64,000 bases of DNA from assembly GCA_003215175.1 (NCBI GenBank), contig QCKS01000002.1, positions 1 through 64,000 of the forward strand. Direction: 5' to 3'. Shown here one piece after another: positions 3,630 to 58,263 of this stretch; position 1 is the first letter of the stretch; each line of letters starts with the position of its first letter. The translations under genes and the position numbers were made by a program. Below the pieces are notes generated by a model, which was not told the DNA's origin, ran no database searches, and was given only the letters and a program-made list of their open reading frames with translations. This DNA is from Acidimicrobiales bacterium AG-410-I20. Its GTDB lineage: Bacteria > Actinomycetota > Acidimicrobiia > Acidimicrobiales > MedAcidi-G1.

Positions 3630-6065
3630 TCAACTTCTCATCTTTGATCCAGAAGGATCAAAGAGCGGCTCATCTAATGGAGTAGCAAGACGCTTCTCAC
3701 CGAGAATTTCAATTTCAAATGTTCCATTTGCATCAATAGGAACGTAGCCAAGAGCACACGATTCTTGTGACCAATGTGCATAGCCCCCAGAAGTAACCCA
3801 ACCGACCACTTCACCGTTAACCCATATTGGCTCATCGCCGATCGCATCAACATCCTCAGTGTCGACTTTGAAAGCAGTTAGCTTACGACTAATACCTTTT
3901 CCTTGAGCGGCTAAAGCCGCTTCCCGACCAATAAAATCTCCTTTATCTAATTTTACGAAGGGCCCCAAACCTGCTTCCCACGGGTTATAGATTGGGCGGT
4001 ACTCGGTAGCCCAACCTCCAAAGTTTTTATCGAAACGTAAAGAGTTCAGAGCATGCAGTCCAAACAATTTCATTCCAAATTGCTCTCCAGTTTCAACTAG
4101 CAAATCAAAAAGAGAAGCCTGTAAAGAAGCTGGCACCCATAATTCGTAACCGAGATCTCCAGTAAAAGAGATACGTCCAACTATGGCTGGAACCATGCCA
4201 ACATTCATCGGTCTAATGTCTAAAAATCGAAAAGCCTCATTGGAAACATCTTCTTCAACCAATGACATCAAAACATCTCTAGCAAGCGGTCCGGCAATCG
4301 AAAGTCCTGTCATTTCATGGCTTAATACCTGATAATGAACTGATCCATCATCAGGTAGATGGCTTGTGAACCATCGGAAGTGATAACCCTCAGCTACACC
4401 TGAGCCAAAGACGAGAAAACGCTCTTCTGCGCTAAATGAGTCGGCCAAAGTCGCGACAGTGAAATCTCCTATCAACATGCCCATTTCATTAAGCATCGGG
4501 GTAAGAGCAAGTCGTCCGGGAGAAGGAACGTTGTTTGTAACAAGTTTTTCTAGAAACTCTCTTGCTCCCGGGCCTGAAAACTCATGCTTTGCAAAACCTG
4601 TTGTTTCTATCAACCCTACTTTTTCTCTGACAGCACGAACTTCTTCCCCAACGCGATCAAAAGCATTTGAACGTTTAAATGTCACATCCTCAATTGGTTC
4701 CTTTCCTTTTTCTTGAAACCACAACGCGTTCTCAAGTCCGTAACTAGCTCCCCAGACCGCATTGGCCTCTGTCAGACGTTCGTAAATAGGAGAGGTGTAC
4801 AGCGGACGCCCCGCCGGTAGCTCTTCATTCGGGAATGAAATTTGGAACCGGCGACTGTAATTCTCCATAACTTTTTCTTGGGTATAACGCGGAGAAGTCC
4901 AGTCCCCATAGCGTGCTACGTCCATTCCCCAAATATCAAAACCTGGGTCTCCTGTGGTTATCCAATTTGCCATAGCTAAACCAACACCCCCGCCTTGGCT
5001 TAGACCTGCCATAACGCCACAAGCCACCCAGTGACCTTTTTGGTCGCGAATAGGCCCGATTAACGGATTCCCATCTGGAGCAAATGTAAATGGGCCATTT
5101 ATTACTTGCTTTATTCCCACGTCATTAAAAATTGGGAAATGAGCAAAACTCACTTCAAATGAAGGCTCAAGCCGGTCTAAGTCAGGGGTAAGAAGTTGAG
5201 AGCCAAAATCCCACGGCGTTTCTTTAACAGACCAGGGAACACATGCTTTTTCATAGGTTCCTAGTAAGAGTCCAGCACCTTCAGCACGCAGATAAATTTC
5301 ACCACCAAAATCTACTGCGCCAAAACCGTGCCCGCCTGTTGCTTCTAGCCAAGGTTTGATTTCAGGGATTTCTTCCGTAAGTAAGTACATGTGCTCCATT
5401 GCCAAAATTGGTAGTTCAATACCACACATGCGCCCGACTTCACGTGCCCAAAGGCCACCACAGTTAACAATATGTTCAGTGTTTATTACTCCTTGTTCGG
5501 TAACTACATCCCATGTGCCATCTTTTTTTTGAACTAGGTCGTGAGCCCATGTGTTTCTATACACTTCTGCTCCAGCCATTCGCGCTGCGGTAGCATAAGC
5601 ATTTGTTACACCGGATGGGTCTACGTGCCCGCCGACTGGATCCCACATAGCTCCAGCGAAGTATTTTTCCTCAAGGATGGGAAGCATCTCTTTAGCCTCA
5701 GCAACGGAAATCATCTCAGTTTCCATAGAGAGATATTGTCCGCGCGCATGAGTCATACGTAGCCAATCCAGTCGCTCTTCGGTGTCCGCTAGCATCAATT
5801 CTCCAGTTTGATGGATACCGCAGTCCACGCCGGATATTTCTTCTATATCTTTGTAAAGTTGCACGGTATATCTCTGAAGAGCAGCAATATTTGGGTCACC
5901 GTTGAGTGTGAGCATGCCTCCAGCAGCGTGCCAAGTTGAACCAGCGGTTAATTCTTTGCGTTCCACTAAAACTACGTCAGTCCAGCCGGCCTTGGTTAAG
6001 TGATAGAGGATGCTCGCTCCGACTACACCACCTCCGATGACCACAACTTGTGTGCTGGTTTTCAT
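3630..6065 (-). CDS. dimethylglycine/sarcosine dehydrogenase-like flavoprotein with GcvT domain
   Basis: An 811-residue two-domain protein. The N-terminal DAO-type FAD domain has GGGVVG at 11-16 and STWHAAG with His46 at the place where mammalian dimethylglycine dehydrogenase carries covalent FAD. From about residue 430 a GcvT-like tetrahydrofolate domain begins (YTSPIYERL region) and ends near residue 800. Enzymes of this family oxidatively remove N-methyl groups from dimethylglycine or sarcosine and pass the carbon to tetrahydrofolate as methylene-THF, or release formaldehyde. The gene lies 18 bases after the MttB-like gene and 7 bases before dddP, so it belongs to the same transcript. Whether the substrate is dimethylglycine, sarcosine or another N-methyl compound cannot be read from the sequence. 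Confidence 0.88.
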   Translation of the reverse strand: MKTSTQVVVIGGGVVGASILYHLTKAGWTDVVLVERKELTAGSTWHAAGGMLTLNGDPNIAALQRYTVQLYKDIEEISGVDCGIHQTGELMLADTEERLDWLRMTHARGQYLSMETEMISVAEAKEMLPILEEKYFAGAMWDPVGGHVDPSGVTNAYATAARMAGAEVYRNTWAHDLVQKKDGTWDVVTEQGVINTEHIVNCGGLWAREVGRMCGIELPILAMEHMYLLTEEIPEIKPWLEATGGHGFGAVDFGGEIYLRAEGAGLLLGTYEKACVPWSVKETPWDFGSQLLTPDLDRLEPSFEVSFAHFPIFNDVGIKQVINGPFTFAPDGNPLIGPIRDQKGHWVACGVMAGLSQGGGVGLAMANWITTGDPGFDIWGMDVARYGDWTSPRYTQEKVMENYSRRFQISFPNEELPAGRPLYTSPIYERLTEANAVWGASYGLENALWFQEKGKEPIEDVTFKRSNAFDRVGEEVRAVREKVGLIETTGFAKHEFSGPGAREFLEKLVTNNVPSPGRLALTPMLNEMGMLIGDFTVATLADSFSAEERFLVFGSGVAEGYHFRWFTSHLPDDGSVHYQVLSHEMTGLSIAGPLARDVLMSLVEEDVSNEAFRFLDIRPMNVGMVPAIVGRISFTGDLGYELWVPASLQASLFDLLVETGEQFGMKLFGLHALNSLRFDKNFGGWATEYRPIYNPWEAGLGPFVKLDKGDFIGREAALAAQGKGISRKLTAFKVDTEDVDAIGDEPIWVNGEVVGWVTSGGYAHWSQESCALGYVPIDANGTFEIEILGEKRLATPLDEPLFDPSGSKMRS

Positions 6066-22415: not shown

Positions 22416-23537
22416 ATGGATATCGGAGTTCCCGCAGAGATAAAAACAGCAGAAAAAAGAATTGGTCTTACCCCGAGTGCGGTCAGTGAACTTACTGGCC
22501 TCGGTCACAATGTCGTGATTGAATCTGGAGCAGGGGTTGGCGCTGGGTATGAAGACAACTCCTACCAAGAAGTAGGAGCATCAATAGCTTCTTCCGCTGC
22601 TGAAGTGTTCGACACTTCTGAAATGATTGTAAAAGTTAAAGAGCCTCAAGCATCGGAACGAGCAATGCTTAAACCCCACCACACTCTCTTTACCTATTTA
22701 CACCTTGCCGCTGATCAACCTCAAACCGATGAACTTATTAAAAGCGGTGCGACTTGCATTGCTTATGAAACAGTTACTGATGATGCAGGACGTTTACCAC
22801 TGCTTGCCCCTATGTCGGCAATTGCTGGACGCATGTCGGTACAAGCAGGAGCGCATGCTTTAGAAGCCACTCAAGGTGGGTCAGGGCTTTTACTAGGTGG
22901 AGTTCCGGGAGTTCGGCCAGGAAAAGTTGTCATTATCGGAGGAGGAGTTGTAGGTGAGAATGCCGCAGAAATGGCTGTAGGCCTTAAAGCCGAAGTCACG
23001 GTGCTTGATCGCAATCCAAAAGTACTTGAAGAGCTAGATAAAAGATTTAATGGTCGAATACGAACTGTGTATTCAACGAATGCAGAACTTGAGAATTCAG
23101 TTATTGATGCCGATCTTGTTATCGGAGCAGTTTTAGTAAAAGGAGCGAGAGCTCCTCGGTTAGTTACACGAGAGATGCTCTCTCGTATGAGAAAAGGATC
23201 AGTCCTTGTCGATGTAGCGGTAGACCAAGGCGGATGTTTTGAAACTACGAAAGCTACTACACACTTAGACCCAACTTTTGTAGTCGATGGAATTGTTCAT
23301 TACTGCGTGGCAAATATGCCAGGAGGGGTTCCCCGAACCTCTACTCAGGCCCTTTCAAATGCGACTTTGCCGTATGTTGTAGCGCTCGCGAACAAAGGCG
23401 TGCTAGAAGCTCTTCAACAAGATCCACATTTATTAAATGGACTCAACGTTTGCGATGGAAACATCACTGATAAAGCAGTTGCTGAAACTTTTTCTCTTGA
23501 CTACGTCGCTCCCATAGAGGCACTTAGCGCTAAATAG
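22416..23537 (+). CDS. ald: alanine dehydrogenase
   Basis: A 373-residue enzyme of normal length catalysing NAD-dependent oxidative deamination of L-alanine to pyruvate and ammonia. Signature residues are visible: Arg15 in EKRIGLTP, the lysine of IVKVKEP (about 75) and His96 in YLHLAAD. The NAD-binding glycine motif is [19 protein letters not shown], and [14 protein letters not shown] lies in the C-terminal half. The start ATG follows TAGGAGAG. Control by the divergent Lrp-type gene is likely. It ends 3 bases before the convergent LLM-oxidoreductase gene. Confidence 0.95.
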
Positions 23538-23540
23538 AAC

Positions 23541-24449
23541 TTAAAGACGACTTAACAAAAGGGAGTGAGTGCGGGCACTCTCGTCAGCATTTCTCCCAAT
23601 TTCCAATGCTGCAAAATCAGTTGTCCCAGCAGCACTAAGAGCATCAAGTTGTGACATCACTTGTTCTTCGTCTCCAACAATCGCAACCTCACCTGGCTGG
23701 TCGACCCCTTCGCGATCAAGCATTGCCCGGTAACTTGGCAATTGTCCATACATCGCGAACATTTTAGATAGGTCTTCACGCGCTTCAGATTCGTTATCGG
23801 TAACGCAAATAGGCAAACTACACACGATGCGAGGAGCTGGCCTTCCTGCTTCAGCTGCTGCCGCATTAATTGTGGGAGCGATATGAGAAGCAATAGTTTT
23901 AGGTCCAGTCATCCAGAGGATTGTGCCATCACACCGGTGGCCAGCAACTCGAAGAGACTGTTCTCCTAATGCGGCAACCATTACGGATGGGGCTTGACTC
24001 GGGCGAGAAGTGTTCATGTAAGTGGTGAATGCTTCCCCTTTGTATTCGACAGCGCCCTCTTCAAGCAATGGATTGAGTATCGAAAGATAATCAATGAGGT
24101 GGCGGATTGGTTTATCAAATGACATACCGAGCATCCCTTCAACTACGGGTTGATGAGATAAACCAATTCCTAAAACTAGAGGCTGCTCTCCCATCACTGC
24201 TTGGGTGGTTAGTGCTTGCCCAGCAAGCATGGTTGGATGCCGAGGATAGGTAGGAATTACCGCGGTCCCTAATTCCAGAGAAGGAAATTTTCCATCCATT
24301 GCAGTGAATACCGTCAAAGCATCAATAAGGCCAGTTTGGGCTAACCACCACCCAGAGAATCCTTCGTCTGCACTTTGAGCGGCATGGTCTTTGAGAGCGC
24401 CGACATCGCCAGAGCCTAAAAGGCTAGAAGCATTTAGAGAAATACGCAT
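23541..24449 (-). CDS. LLM class (F420-type) flavin-dependent oxidoreductase
   Basis: A luciferase-like TIM-barrel monooxygenase/oxidoreductase of 302 residues. Recognisable parts are GFSGWWLAQTGLIDALT, LGTAVIPTYPRHPTMLAGQA and VLGIGLSHQPVVEGMLGMSF, typical of the F420-dependent subfamilies of Actinobacteria. I chose the ATG at 24449 (MRISLNASS) because AAAGGAGATCCC precedes it directly; an upstream in-frame ATG at 24482 would overlap the preceding gene. It is the last gene of an operon with the SRPBCC gene (10 bases upstream) and the GrdB-like selenoprotein candidate. Its substrate is unknown. Confidence 0.88.
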   Translation of the reverse strand: MRISLNASSLLGSGDVGALKDHAAQSADEGFSGWWLAQTGLIDALTVFTAMDGKFPSLELGTAVIPTYPRHPTMLAGQALTTQAVMGEQPLVLGIGLSHQPVVEGMLGMSFDKPIRHLIDYLSILNPLLEEGAVEYKGEAFTTYMNTSRPSQAPSVMVAALGEQSLRVAGHRCDGTILWMTGPKTIASHIAPTINAAAAEAGRPAPRIVCSLPICVTDNESEAREDLSKMFAMYGQLPSYRAMLDREGVDQPGEVAIVGDEEQVMSQLDALSAAGTTDFAALEIGRNADESARTHSLLLSRL

Positions 24450-24459
24450 GGGATCTCCT

Positions 24460-24924
24460 TTAGTTTGCTGAAGATTCAGCAACCGTTTTTATTTGATCAA
24501 CAAATCCTGTTATAACTTGTTGAGACAGTGTAACAAAGCCATCGCTCTCCCCATTTGGAAGAGGGTCAATCAATAAAGTCCATACTATTAAGCACCCGTC
24601 TTCTTCTTCAGTTAACGCAGTGGTTCCTTGGTAAAGAGCTACTGGCGCGCCGGAGATCTCGTAGACCCGGCGCCATGGGGGTTCAAAAGAAATAACTTCT
24701 TCACGTAAGTCTTGACCTGGTATTGGTAGAGCTATAACCGCTCCTAGCCCATGAGGAGCGGGATCACCTTCAGTTAAATAGCCACCTACATTTTTCTCAA
24801 TTAATTCAAGTAATACGTTCCAAGTAGTTTCACGATCAGCATCAACATGACGTTCTACGACAAAGGTTGTGTATTCCTTCTTTACATACGGGGGAGGATC
24901 GTCGGGGCTATTTTCTTCATTCAT
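24460..24924 (-). CDS. SRPBCC family (polyketide cyclase/START-like) protein
   Basis: A 154-residue protein with the helix-grip pattern: an N-terminal strand around TTFVVERHVDADRETTWNVL, a middle region with PPWRRVYEISGAPVALYQGT, and a long C-terminal helix ending QVITGFVDQIKTVAESS. SRPBCC proteins bind hydrophobic ligands and include cyclases and aromatase-like enzymes, but the ligand here is unknown. Its start overlaps the end of the GrdB-like gene by eight bases (24917-24924), so translation is coupled. The trio with the LLM oxidoreductase suggests a common pathway. Confidence 0.75.
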   Translation of the reverse strand: MNEENSPDDPPPYVKKEYTTFVVERHVDADRETTWNVLLELIEKNVGGYLTEGDPAPHGLGAVIALPIPGQDLREEVISFEPPWRRVYEISGAPVALYQGTTALTEEEDGCLIVWTLLIDPLPNGESDGFVTLSQQVITGFVDQIKTVAESSAN

Positions 24925-26098
24925 CGGTGTCGCTTCCTGGTTCGCGTACTTGAGTCAAGGGAAGAATATAAGTGGTGAAATAGGAGCCAGCTTCTTGCTT
25001 TTCTAATGCAATACGAGCACGTTGAATTACGTCACCAGCCTTGGTTTGAGTAACAAACCAAGTTTCGGCTTGTCGCGCCCCAGGAACACCTTCGCTCAAA
25101 GACAGTGAAGCCTCTTCATAAAAATTCTTAATGTCTGCTCCTAACTTCGTTGGGTCTCCAGGCAGACCAACAGAAGTCCAGTCTTCTCCGTCAGCTATTC
25201 TTGCAAAAAGAGTTACGATTTCTGGAACTTGTTCCGGGGTAACCGCTTTACCAACAGTGGTTCTTCCATATTTTTCATAGGTGCGCCGCCAGATGGGTAA
25301 TAACCCAAGTGCCTCTGCTTCAGCAGGATGTTTGTCGCTGTGATCAGCAGGAGGAATCGTGCATGAAAGAGGAGCATCTGCGTCGTCGCTTATTTCTTCC
25401 GGGTAGTCAACTAGAACTGGCCCAGATTCCGCATTTAATAAATCAAATGCAGCATCAAGAACTTGCTGTTGAAATTTTGAGTCACCAGGTTTCCCTAAAG
25501 GTCTACCTAGAGGAAATTCGCAATGAAGGGCGCGTGGCGGCTGGGTTGCTTCTATCTGCTCACGAATGATGGAAATCGCAACAGTCGCTATACCCGACTG
25601 TTCAAGTACTGAGGCGAGCGTACCCACGGTACGCGTGCAAAGTGGTCAAACAGGAGTAAGGAGAACTACATCTACTTCATCTTCAAGCAGTATTTTTGCA
25701 GCTGCCGGACCAGTATCTAATCGGATAGTTTCCAAAGTGTGGTCAGGTTGAGCACCCATAAATGAAATATGAGTCTTAGCCACTGATCCAATCTTTCCTT
25801 CAGCAGCCATCTCATCAAGACGATCAAGTGGAATCACGATATTGGAGTCAACTATCCATCCAGTTCGATCAAAATTTGGACTGAAATGACCCAAAGTAAA
25901 GTTACGCTCTTCACCGGATAAAACAGTGAAACCTTGGTCTCCTGGGTTCCAATCAGCATTTCCTTCTTGATTCAATCCAGCTGTTGTAACGACAGCGACT
26001 CGACATTCTGAAAGCGGTTTAGGGCTTACCCAAGGAACCTCGTCAAAAGAATATCCTTCTAACCGAGAAAGAAGTTTCCGTACAACCTTGTCACTCAT
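24917..26098 (-). CDS. GrdB/PrdB-family reductase-like selenoprotein (in-frame TGA read as Sec)
   Basis: One 393-residue frame interrupted by a single TGA at 25646-25648 (codon 151). Both halves belong to the glycine/sarcosine/betaine/D-proline reductase selenoprotein B family. The first half has VALVTT-like RVAVVTTAGL, VIPLDRLDEMAAEGKIGSVA and HISFMGAQPD. It ends VDVVLLTPV just before the TGA. The second half continues directly PLCTRTVGTLASVLEQSGIA and has PPRALHCEFPLGRPLGKPGD. Relatives carry Cys or Sec at the TGA position in a C/U-x-x-C redox motif (here U-P-L-C). TGA ends other genes here, so general reassignment is excluded. A candidate SECIS hairpin follows. A GTG at 25627 could start a separate second ORF, but that would cut the family domain in two. 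The enzyme's substrate is unknown; a Cys-to-TGA nonsense mutation is the main alternative. Confidence 0.8.
25618..25634 (-). promoter_or_regulatory. candidate bacterial SECIS hairpin
   Basis: On the coding strand, GCGTACC-GTG-GGTACGC forms a perfect 7-bp stem with a three-base GUG loop, or CGUGG if the top pair opens. The stem begins 12 bases and the loop 19 bases downstream of the in-frame TGA (25646-25648). Bacterial SECIS elements recognised by SelB are short hairpins inside the coding region just after the UGA, with G residues in the apical loop, so position and form agree. A bulged U as in E. coli fdhF is not obvious. Confidence 0.5.
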
Positions 26099-26308: not shown

Positions 26309-27466
26309 GTGGCTACAGATAAGGCTCTTGCCGATGAAATGATTTCAACCGTTCGCTCTTGGGTAGATCAAGATGTCATACCTAACGTGGAAGCATTTGA
26401 ACTAGAAGACGAATTTCCTCAAGCCATGTTCGATCAAATGTGTGAATTTGGCTTATTCGGTTCAACGATCCCAGAAGAATATGGCGGCTTAGGACTAGAT
26501 ATCACTACCTATACCCGCATTATTGAAGAACTATCAAGAGGCTTCATGTCTTTAGCTGGAATTTTAAATACTCACAAAATTGCAGTGACAATGATTTGCC
26601 GATACGGAACCGAAGAACAAAAAGAACGATTCCTTCCCCGTATGGTTGATGGCTCATTTAGAGCAGCTTTTTCACTCTCAGAACCAGATGCCGGAAGTGA
26701 CACGGGGGCTCTTCGCTGCAAAGCAGAATTAGACGGCGACGAATGGATAATTAATGGAACCAAAATGTGGGTTACCAACGGCGTTCGTTCTTCCCTTGTC
26801 ATGCTCCTTGCTCGCACCCCTGATGATCGTGTCACTTGCTTCTTAGTAGAAAAAGAGCCAGGGGAAACATTTCAAGGCATCACTGCCTCAAAGAAAATCA
26901 ACAAACTTGGATATCGCGGACTGGAAACAGTCGAGATGTCCTATGTAGATCACAGAGTTCCAAATGACAATGTATTAGGAGGCGAAGAAGGCCTTGGTAA
27001 CGGAAGAAAATATGCGCTTTCTGCCTTAGAACTAGGAAGAATAAATGTTGCCTCTAGAGCAGTAGGAGTAGCACAGGCAGCATTCGATGCAGCGATGACG
27101 TATGCGCAGCAACGTGAGACATTTGGGCAACCAATCTTCAAACACCAAGCTATTCAATTCATGTTGGCAGAAATGGCAACAAAACTGCAGGCAGCACGCC
27201 TAATGACCTACGATGCTGCTACCCGTGCAGACGCAGGCGAAAGGGTGGACATGGAAGCAGGAATGGCAAAACTTTTTGCTTCAGAAGCTGCTTATGAAAT
27301 AGCCACCGACGCTCTAAGAATCCACGGAGGGAACGGATACACCACCGAATATCCCGTAGAAAGATACTTTAGAGACACTCCGCTAATGATTATTGGCGAA
27401 GGAACAAGCGAAATTCAAAAAATGGTAATAGCCCGAAAATTATTAGATCGCTATTCTGTGGAGTGA
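26309..27466 (+). CDS. acyl-CoA dehydrogenase
   Basis: A 385-residue acyl-CoA dehydrogenase. The middle domain has FSLSEPDAGSDTGALR and WIINGTKMWVTNGV. The C-terminal domain has GGNGYTTEYPVERYFRD and the catalytic-Glu segment IIGEGTSEIQKMVIARKLL. It oxidises an unidentified acyl-CoA with FAD and donates electrons to ETF. The start is GTG at 26309, preceded by AAAGGA at suitable distance; the nearby ATG at 26304 is out of frame. The molybdenum hydroxylase gene starts one base after its stop, so the two are co-transcribed. Confidence 0.92.
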   Translation: MATDKALADEMISTVRSWVDQDVIPNVEAFELEDEFPQAMFDQMCEFGLFGSTIPEEYGGLGLDITTYTRIIEELSRGFMSLAGILNTHKIAVTMICRYGTEEQKERFLPRMVDGSFRAAFSLSEPDAGSDTGALRCKAELDGDEWIINGTKMWVTNGVRSSLVMLLARTPDDRVTCFLVEKEPGETFQGITASKKINKLGYRGLETVEMSYVDHRVPNDNVLGGEEGLGNGRKYALSALELGRINVASRAVGVAQAAFDAAMTYAQQRETFGQPIFKHQAIQFMLAEMATKLQAARLMTYDAATRADAGERVDMEAGMAKLFASEAAYEIATDALRIHGGNGYTTEYPVERYFRDTPLMIIGEGTSEIQKMVIARKLLDRYSVE

Positions 27467-57921: not shown

Positions 57922-58263
57922 TTACTCTGAATCACTCGATTGCTTATCGTCGTTAGATTCGTTGGCTGGTTCTTCTGATTCGTTGGCTGGTTCTTCTGAT
58001 TCGTTGGCTGGTTCTTCTGGTTCAACACCATCTCTAAGGTCTTGCCATGTTTTGAGCGCTGCACGATAGGCAGTATCAGCTTCGGCTATAACGTCTGCTT
58101 CTGCTCCAGCATCTTGTGCTTTCTTTAGAGCGCCGGCTGCATCATCTTTAGCTTTAGCAGCTTTCGCTAAACGTTTATCTTCGACTGCTTCAGACTCAGC
58201 TGCTTCAGCTCTTCTGTTGAAGAGTAAAAGAGCTTTACGTGTCTCTTCATCAAGTTTGACCAT
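57922..58263 (-). CDS. small charged hypothetical protein with EEPANES repeats
   Basis: A 113-residue, strongly acidic, alanine-rich protein I do not recognise. Residues 1-75 look like a long amphipathic helix or coiled coil (TRKALLLFNRRAEAAESEAV, DDAAGALKKAQDAGAEADVI). The tail has three exact copies of EEPANES followed by a Ser/Asp-rich end. There is no signal or membrane segment. It lies 43 bases upstream of ileS on the same strand. The helix plus disordered tail suggests a structural or binding role only. Confidence 0.6.
   Translation of the reverse strand: MVKLDEETRKALLLFNRRAEAAESEAVEDKRLAKAAKAKDDAAGALKKAQDAGAEADVIAEADTAYRAALKTWQDLRDGVEPEEPANESEEPANESEEPANESNDDKQSSDSE
57956..58018. repeat. 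three exact copies of a 21-bp tandem repeat
   Basis: The unit GATTCGTTGGCTGGTTCTTC+T (21 bases) occurs at 57956-57976, 57977-57997 and 57998-58018 with no mismatch. It encodes the EEPANES heptapeptide on the minus strand. Identical copies at nucleotide level suggest recent slippage expansion, so the copy number may vary among strains. Confidence 0.9.

What the first reader, a model, noticed from the sequence alone, without database searches (positions are those of the whole stretch)
24917..26098. Probable new selenoprotein: GrdB/PrdB-family gene with TGA at the redox-active position
Two adjacent same-frame ORFs (26098-25646 and 25627-24917) join into one 393-codon frame if TGA 25646-25648 is read through. 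The flanking sequence ...VVLLTPV-[TGA]-PLCTRTVG... matches the position where family members carry Cys or Sec in a C/U-x-x-C motif, so the TGA replaces exactly the redox residue. Both halves show family motifs. GrdB and PrdB proteins are best known from anaerobic clostridia; a selenoprotein relative in an apparently aerobic marine actinobacterium, with an SRPBCC protein and an F420-type oxidoreductase in the operon, would be an undescribed reductase system.
Basis: partly seen in the sequence, partly recalled or inferred. Interest (0 to 1): 0.87.

Follow-up and report, generated by a model that had tools for sequence, protein, structure and literature searches.

The report
PrdB-like selenoprotein in marine Acidimicrobiales
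A gene in an uncultured, apparently oxygen-breathing marine actinobacterium very probably uses a UGA 'stop' codon to insert the rare amino acid selenocysteine into a reductase-like protein; the protein family is known from sea-water DNA, but this longer form, which lacks the partner subunit of its anaerobic cousins, has no known function.

Summary
One 393-codon frame (26098-24917, minus) is interrupted only by TGA at 25648-25646 (codon 151). Full-length homologs in Acidimicrobiales and other actinobacteria carry the same TGA in 36 of 37 genomes; the exception has TGC (Cys) and is intact. Sec151 aligns with the Sec of clostridial PrdB (UGTC) and with Cys in a Roseomonas relative. Just 3' of the UGA lies a SECIS hairpin with almost no synonymous variation and covarying pairs. 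The genome encodes selA, selB, tRNA-Sec(UCA) and a Sec-containing SelD.

Less novel than proposed: Sec-containing 'PrdB' proteins have been reported as abundant in sea water since 2005. New here: a long architecture with a ~150-residue C-terminal extension (invariant Cys246, no Pfam match), in genomes with cytochrome oxidase and no PrdA/GrdE-type pyruvoyl subunit. So it is PrdB-like, but not a D-proline or glycine reductase of the known kind. The SRPBCC/F420 'operon' is confined to one clade, and the gene flips strand there.

Best mechanism: a stand-alone selenol reductase using a U-x-x-C couple, substrate unknown.

The parts
24917..26098 (-). prdB-like selenoprotein gene, 393 codons with one in-frame TGA; ends in TGA 24919-24917
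   Evidence: PF07355 E=2e-8, TIGR04483 E=8e-30 (below the equivalog cut-off); homologs
25646..25648 (-). UGA codon 151, read as selenocysteine
   Evidence: TGA in 36 of 37 genomes, TGC in one; aligns with Sec of clostridial PrdB
25637..25639 (-). Cys154, resolving Cys of the UxxC motif, invariant
   Evidence: C in 32/32
25614..25638 (-). SECIS hairpin: GC-AC-GCGUACC-GUG-GGUACGC-UC-GC, apical loop GUG 18 nt after the UGA
   Evidence: fold; synonymous identity 0.7-1.0 over codons +3 to +10 against about 0.3 around it; covariation
25625..25627 (-). GTG listed as start of the second ORF = SECIS apical loop
24920..25381 (-). C-terminal extension, residues 240-393, with invariant Cys246; no Pfam match; found only fused to this family
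24460..24924 (-). SRPBCC protein (PF10604), overlaps the end of the prdB-like gene by 8 nt; neighbour, functional link unproven
23541..24482 (-). F420-dependent LLM oxidoreductase (TIGR03564); neighbour, functional link unproven
26309..27466 (+). acyl-CoA dehydrogenase, conserved neighbour in the same clade
22416..23537 (+). alanine dehydrogenase, conserved neighbour in the same clade

Best explanation
The gene is translated through UGA151 as selenocysteine: SelB with Sec-tRNA(UCA) reads the UGA because of the hairpin immediately 3' of it (strong sequence evidence, not measured; I put this part alone at about 0.97). The product is a PrdB-like selenoprotein with an extra C-terminal domain. It works without the pyruvoyl subunit of proline and glycine reductases (absence shown; the consequence is inferred). 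Most likely the Sec151 selenolate attacks or reduces a small electrophilic substrate, Cys154 resolves the bound selenium as a selenenyl sulfide, and thioredoxin or a low-molecular-weight thiol restores the selenolate. Cys193 and Cys246 may take part. Substrate and electron donor are unknown; these chemical steps are inference from the U-x-x-C motif and the family.
For: Site: TGA in 36 of 37 homologs and TGC in one intact homolog; Sec aligned with Sec of Peptoclostridium and Acetoanaerobium PrdB and Cys of Roseomonas. SECIS: hairpin, suppressed synonymous change only over codons +3 to +10, U-A to C-G exchange in 7 of 33 sequences, scattered on the tree, with 0 of 500 shuffles reaching the covariation score and slid controls lower; the exchange changes the amino acid (Thr to Val or Ala), so RNA pairing overrides protein identity. 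Machinery in the same genome: selA and selB adjacent on contig C18, tRNA-Sec with anticodon TCA on the same contig, SelD itself with Sec in GUGC. No PrdA and no PF09338 pyruvoyl subunit in own genome or genus. Coding constraint on both sides. Aerobic respiration genes.
Against: The hairpin's folding energy alone is not unusual against shuffles (z -0.4 to -1.2), and Rfam's SECIS_1 does not match (that search rang in no control genome). One sequence breaks the covarying pair (C-A, L029), and the loop-closing pair is C-A in most. The own genome is 83% complete, so absences lean on its sister genomes (up to 96%). No conserved partner gene supports any substrate. No protein or activity data. The AlphaFold model failed (pLDDT 32).
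Confidence: 0.6

Rival explanations
1. It is a Sec-dependent thiol/disulfide or peroxide-type redox protein (protection or repair), not an enzyme that cleaves a C-N or C-X bond of a metabolite.
For: U-x-x-C motif with conserved extra cysteines C193 and C246; aerobic host; no pyruvoyl partner for C-N cleavage; most marine U-x-x-C selenoproteins are thiol-redox proteins (PMC2398784).
Against: No thioredoxin-fold match for this protein; the sequence belongs to the PrdB/GrdB superfamily, whose characterised members act on substrate carbon; many invariant polar residues (H71, D77, D84, N86, H110, D128, R189) look like a substrate pocket.
Confidence: 0.3
2. It is the PrdB subunit of a true D-proline reductase, or GrdB of a glycine/betaine/sarcosine reductase.
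For: Best NCBIfam match is TIGR04483 PrdB, E 8e-30; the marine family is filed as proline reductase in the literature (PMC1088965, PMC2398784).
Against: 104 bits against an equivalog cut-off of 300; no PrdA and no GrdE/PrdA-type PF09338 gene in own genome and genus, although the same search finds strong hits in 4 of 61 relatives; 150-residue extension absent from PrdB; aerobic host.
Confidence: 0.05
3. UGA is a real stop: two separate genes (second starting at GTG 25627), a pseudogene, or a sequencing error.
For: Standard ORF listing gives two ORFs.
Against: Same TGA in 36 genomes, never TAA or TAG, one TGC homolog intact; purifying selection on both halves; the GTG is the SECIS loop, and Sec151 and Cys154 would be lost from the second ORF.
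Confidence: 0.01
4. UGA is reassigned generally (for example to Trp, as in code 4).
For: None beyond the open frame.
Against: This gene itself ends in TGA and only two long TGA-interrupted frames exist in the window; the aligned residue is Cys or Sec, never Trp; dedicated tRNA-Sec and selAB present.
Confidence: 0.005

Closest known systems
Marine 'proline reductase PrdB' selenoproteins of Sargasso Sea/GOS (PMC1088965, PMC2398784, PMC9402790)
   Same: pfam07355, U-x-x-C, Sec/Cys exchange, marine bacteria; this gene very probably belongs to that set
   Different: those papers give read-level counts only; their main texts report no C-terminal extension, actinobacterial host or missing pyruvoyl partner for PrdB (supplements not read)
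Clostridial D-proline reductase PrdB (TIGR04483)
   Same: homologous over residues 26-221; Sec at the aligned position
   Different: about 29-36% identity; PrdB is ~240 residues with UGTC and works with pyruvoyl PrdA; here UPLC, +150 residues, no PrdA
Glycine/sarcosine/betaine reductase GrdB/GrdF/GrdH (PF07355, TIGR01918)
   Same: C-terminal part of the PF07355 profile matches residues 17-148; U-x-x-C
   Different: lacks the N-terminal ~210 positions of the profile and the third Cys of UxxCxxC; no GrdE-type subunit
'Glycine/sarcosine/betaine reductase selenoprotein B family protein' of aerobic Alphaproteobacteria (Roseomonas)
   Same: relative with no annotated Grd/Prd partner beside it, C-x-x-C at the site
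   Different: Cys form, ~300 residues, more like the short paralog on own contig C29

Membership tests
Bacterial selenoprotein (SelB-decoded UGA) | In-frame UGA conserved against Cys/Sec in homologs | tested here: met
Bacterial selenoprotein (SelB-decoded UGA) | SECIS hairpin immediately 3' of UGA within the coding region | tested here: met
   loop GUG 18 nt downstream
Bacterial selenoprotein (SelB-decoded UGA) | selA, selB, selD, tRNA-Sec(UCA) in the genome | tested here: met
Bacterial selenoprotein (SelB-decoded UGA) | Sec present in the protein | not testable with these tools
   needs mass spectrometry or 75Se labelling
PF07355/GrdB-PrdB superfamily | profile match over curated cut-off and C/U-x-x-C at the site | tested here: met
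   34.2 bits, cut-off 22
D-proline reductase PrdB (TIGR04483) | score over equivalog cut-off 300 | tested here: not met
   104 bits
D-proline reductase PrdB (TIGR04483) | PrdA pyruvoyl proprotein in the genome | tested here: not met
   none in own genome or genus; own genome 83% complete, sisters up to 96%
Glycine/betaine/sarcosine reductase protein B | GrdE-type PF09338 subunit | tested here: not met
   none in own genome or genus; found in 4 of 61 relatives
Glycine reductase | GrdA selenoprotein (PF04723) | not tested
D-proline reductase PrdB (TIGR04483) | D-proline to 5-aminovalerate activity | not testable with these tools
   needs assay

The most novel reading that the evidence does not exclude
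A single-chain, oxygen-tolerant Sec reductase family: the PrdB active site freed from its pyruvoyl subunit and joined to a C-terminal domain of unknown fold, used by marine Acidimicrobiales for an undescribed reductive reaction, and responsible for part of what marine surveys file as 'proline reductase'.
Probability: 0.45. Interest if true: 0.65.

Novelty: new variant of a known kind. Interest (0 to 1): 0.45.

Why it matters
Sec-containing 'PrdB' is one of the most abundant marine selenoprotein families, and its name implies an anaerobic Stickland enzyme. These genomes show at least one large group that cannot be that enzyme as known: an aerobic host, no pyruvoyl subunit, a different architecture. 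The label should be changed and the activity sought; it bears on how sea-water bacteria spend selenium. It also gives a clean case of RNA-structure constraint overriding amino-acid choice next to a UGA.

Tried and rejected
Rfam gathering scan of the window and SECIS_1 on the genome: nothing; bacterial SECIS vary too much, and SECIS_1 rang in no control. PDB sequence search: no hit. Neighbour clustering for a conserved partner of the ~45%-identical subfamilies: nothing beyond lineage-local genes. Considered and rejected: general UGA reassignment, pseudogene, separate downstream gene from GTG 25627 (that GTG is the hairpin loop). An SRPBCC/F420 partnership was kept only as possible, because the gene lies on the opposite strand to them in G002, G006, G012 and G024. 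Literature searches for Acidimicrobiia selenoproteins found none; other term sets gave no paper on this form.

Full report
Observation. On the minus strand, 26098-24917 is one frame of 393 codons interrupted only by TGA at 25648-25646, codon 151. Both halves match the PrdB/GrdB superfamily: PF07355 at 34.2 bits (cut-off 22), and TIGR04483 PrdB at E 8e-30 over residues 26-221, spanning the TGA, but at 104 bits against an equivalog cut-off of 300.

Relatives. In 61 genomes of the same genus, family and order, 42 carry homologs. The long form was read at the site in 37 genomes once a phylum-wide sample was added. In 36 of them codon 151 is TGA; in one (G085, L060, same phylum but another order) it is TGC and the gene is intact. 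No TAA, TAG or frameshift occurs at the site. Named close relatives are marine Acidimicrobiales, such as MedAcidi-G2B at 92% identity. Aligned with clostridial PrdB, residue 151 falls on its Sec (UGTC), and on Cys in a Roseomonas relative (CPVC). dN is 0.05-0.09 and dS 0.8-1.6 against the 86%-identical ortholog, upstream and downstream of the TGA alike.

SECIS. Eighteen bases after the UGA lies the loop GUG of a hairpin GCGUACC-GUG-GGUACGC, with a second short stem GC/GC below it. Its energy alone is unremarkable against shuffles, so the case rests on comparison. Over 29 genomes, synonymous codons agree in 70-100% of pairs at codons +3 to +10, but only about 20-60% at most surrounding codons. 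Column pair 18-28 is U-A in 25 sequences and C-G in 7; no shuffle of 500 reaches the covariation score, and sliding the partners lowers it from 0.132 to 0.097 or less and the paired cells from 93% to 58% or less. On the tree the C-G state appears in separate places (L017, L062, L063, L031+L065, L019, L020). The partner side of this change is ACG to GTG or GCG, so the amino acid changes while the base pair is kept. In the TGC homolog the stem has decayed.

Machinery. The same genome holds selA and selB side by side on contig C18 (about 28-30 kb), a tRNA-Sec with anticodon TCA on that contig and a selD whose own active site reads GUGC with TGA as U. A second, shorter PrdB-like selenoprotein gene lies on contig C29 with UPVC and its own hairpin.

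What it is not. PrdA is absent from own genome and genus, and so is any PF09338 subunit, the pyruvoyl-forming partner of glycine, betaine, sarcosine and proline reductases (family knowledge); the same search gives strong matches in four of 61 relatives, so it can find them. Own genome is 83% complete; sister genomes reach 96%. Two COX1 genes indicate aerobic respiration. Residues 240-393 have no Pfam match, and in 396 genomes of the phylum they occur only in genomes with the long form. Cys154 and Cys246 are invariant, and Cys193 nearly so, in 32 full rows.

Context. AlaDH, Lrp, LLM, SRPBCC, the prdB-like gene and an acyl-CoA dehydrogenase stay together in the window's clade, but the prdB-like gene lies on the opposite strand from SRPBCC/LLM in G002, G006, G012 and G024. 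The ~45%-identical subfamilies have none of these neighbours in a conserved way. The 8-base overlap with SRPBCC is therefore at most a local arrangement.

Function. Best-supported mechanism: UGA decoding by SelB (well supported), then a stand-alone selenol reductase with the Sec151/Cys154 couple recycled by thioredoxin or thiols (inferred). Substrate unknown. A thiol/peroxide redox role is the main rival.

Known or new. Sec-containing PrdB proteins with UxxC were the third most abundant known selenoprotein family in the Sargasso Sea (42 genes; PMC1088965) and among the most abundant in GOS (235 Sec and 110 Cys; PMC2398784); a 2021 survey gives proline reductase as 6.4% of marine selenoprotein genes (PMC9402790). 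Their fusion lists, as far as the main texts show, do not mention PrdB. So the family is known; the long form, its host lineage and its lack of a pyruvoyl partner appear undescribed in the papers read. Supplementary data could not be read.

Noticed in passing
G000 contig C29:6232-6897 (L050, TGA at 5629-5631): Second PrdB-like gene in the same genome, short form (~300 aa), also with in-frame TGA (LLVPV-U-PVCHQTV) and a downstream hairpin; homologs in most family members searched, each with one TGA.
   Followed up: partly
G000 contig C22:10231-11154 (L049): selD is itself a selenoprotein gene: AGUGCKF with TGA at U.
   Followed up: partly
L060 (G085): Intact Cys (TGC) homolog of the long form in a genome that still has selA; the hairpin has decayed.
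   Followed up: partly
G045:C77:18472-20999, G057:C57, G023:C45, G019:C24: PF09338 pyruvoyl-type subunits in a few order members; in G045 one lies next to a weak PrdB-like frame, suggesting a real two-subunit reductase in some Acidimicrobiia.
   Followed up: no
L068 (G215 contig C157:71609-72667): A further, divergent long-form paralog (39% identity, VPI-U-PICTGSVG).
   Followed up: no
window 57956-58023: 21-base tandem repeat, 3.2 copies, 97% matches (unit length a multiple of three).
   Followed up: no
window 61981 (+): Second TGA-interrupted frame (130 + 70 codons); no support sought, probably chance.
   Followed up: no
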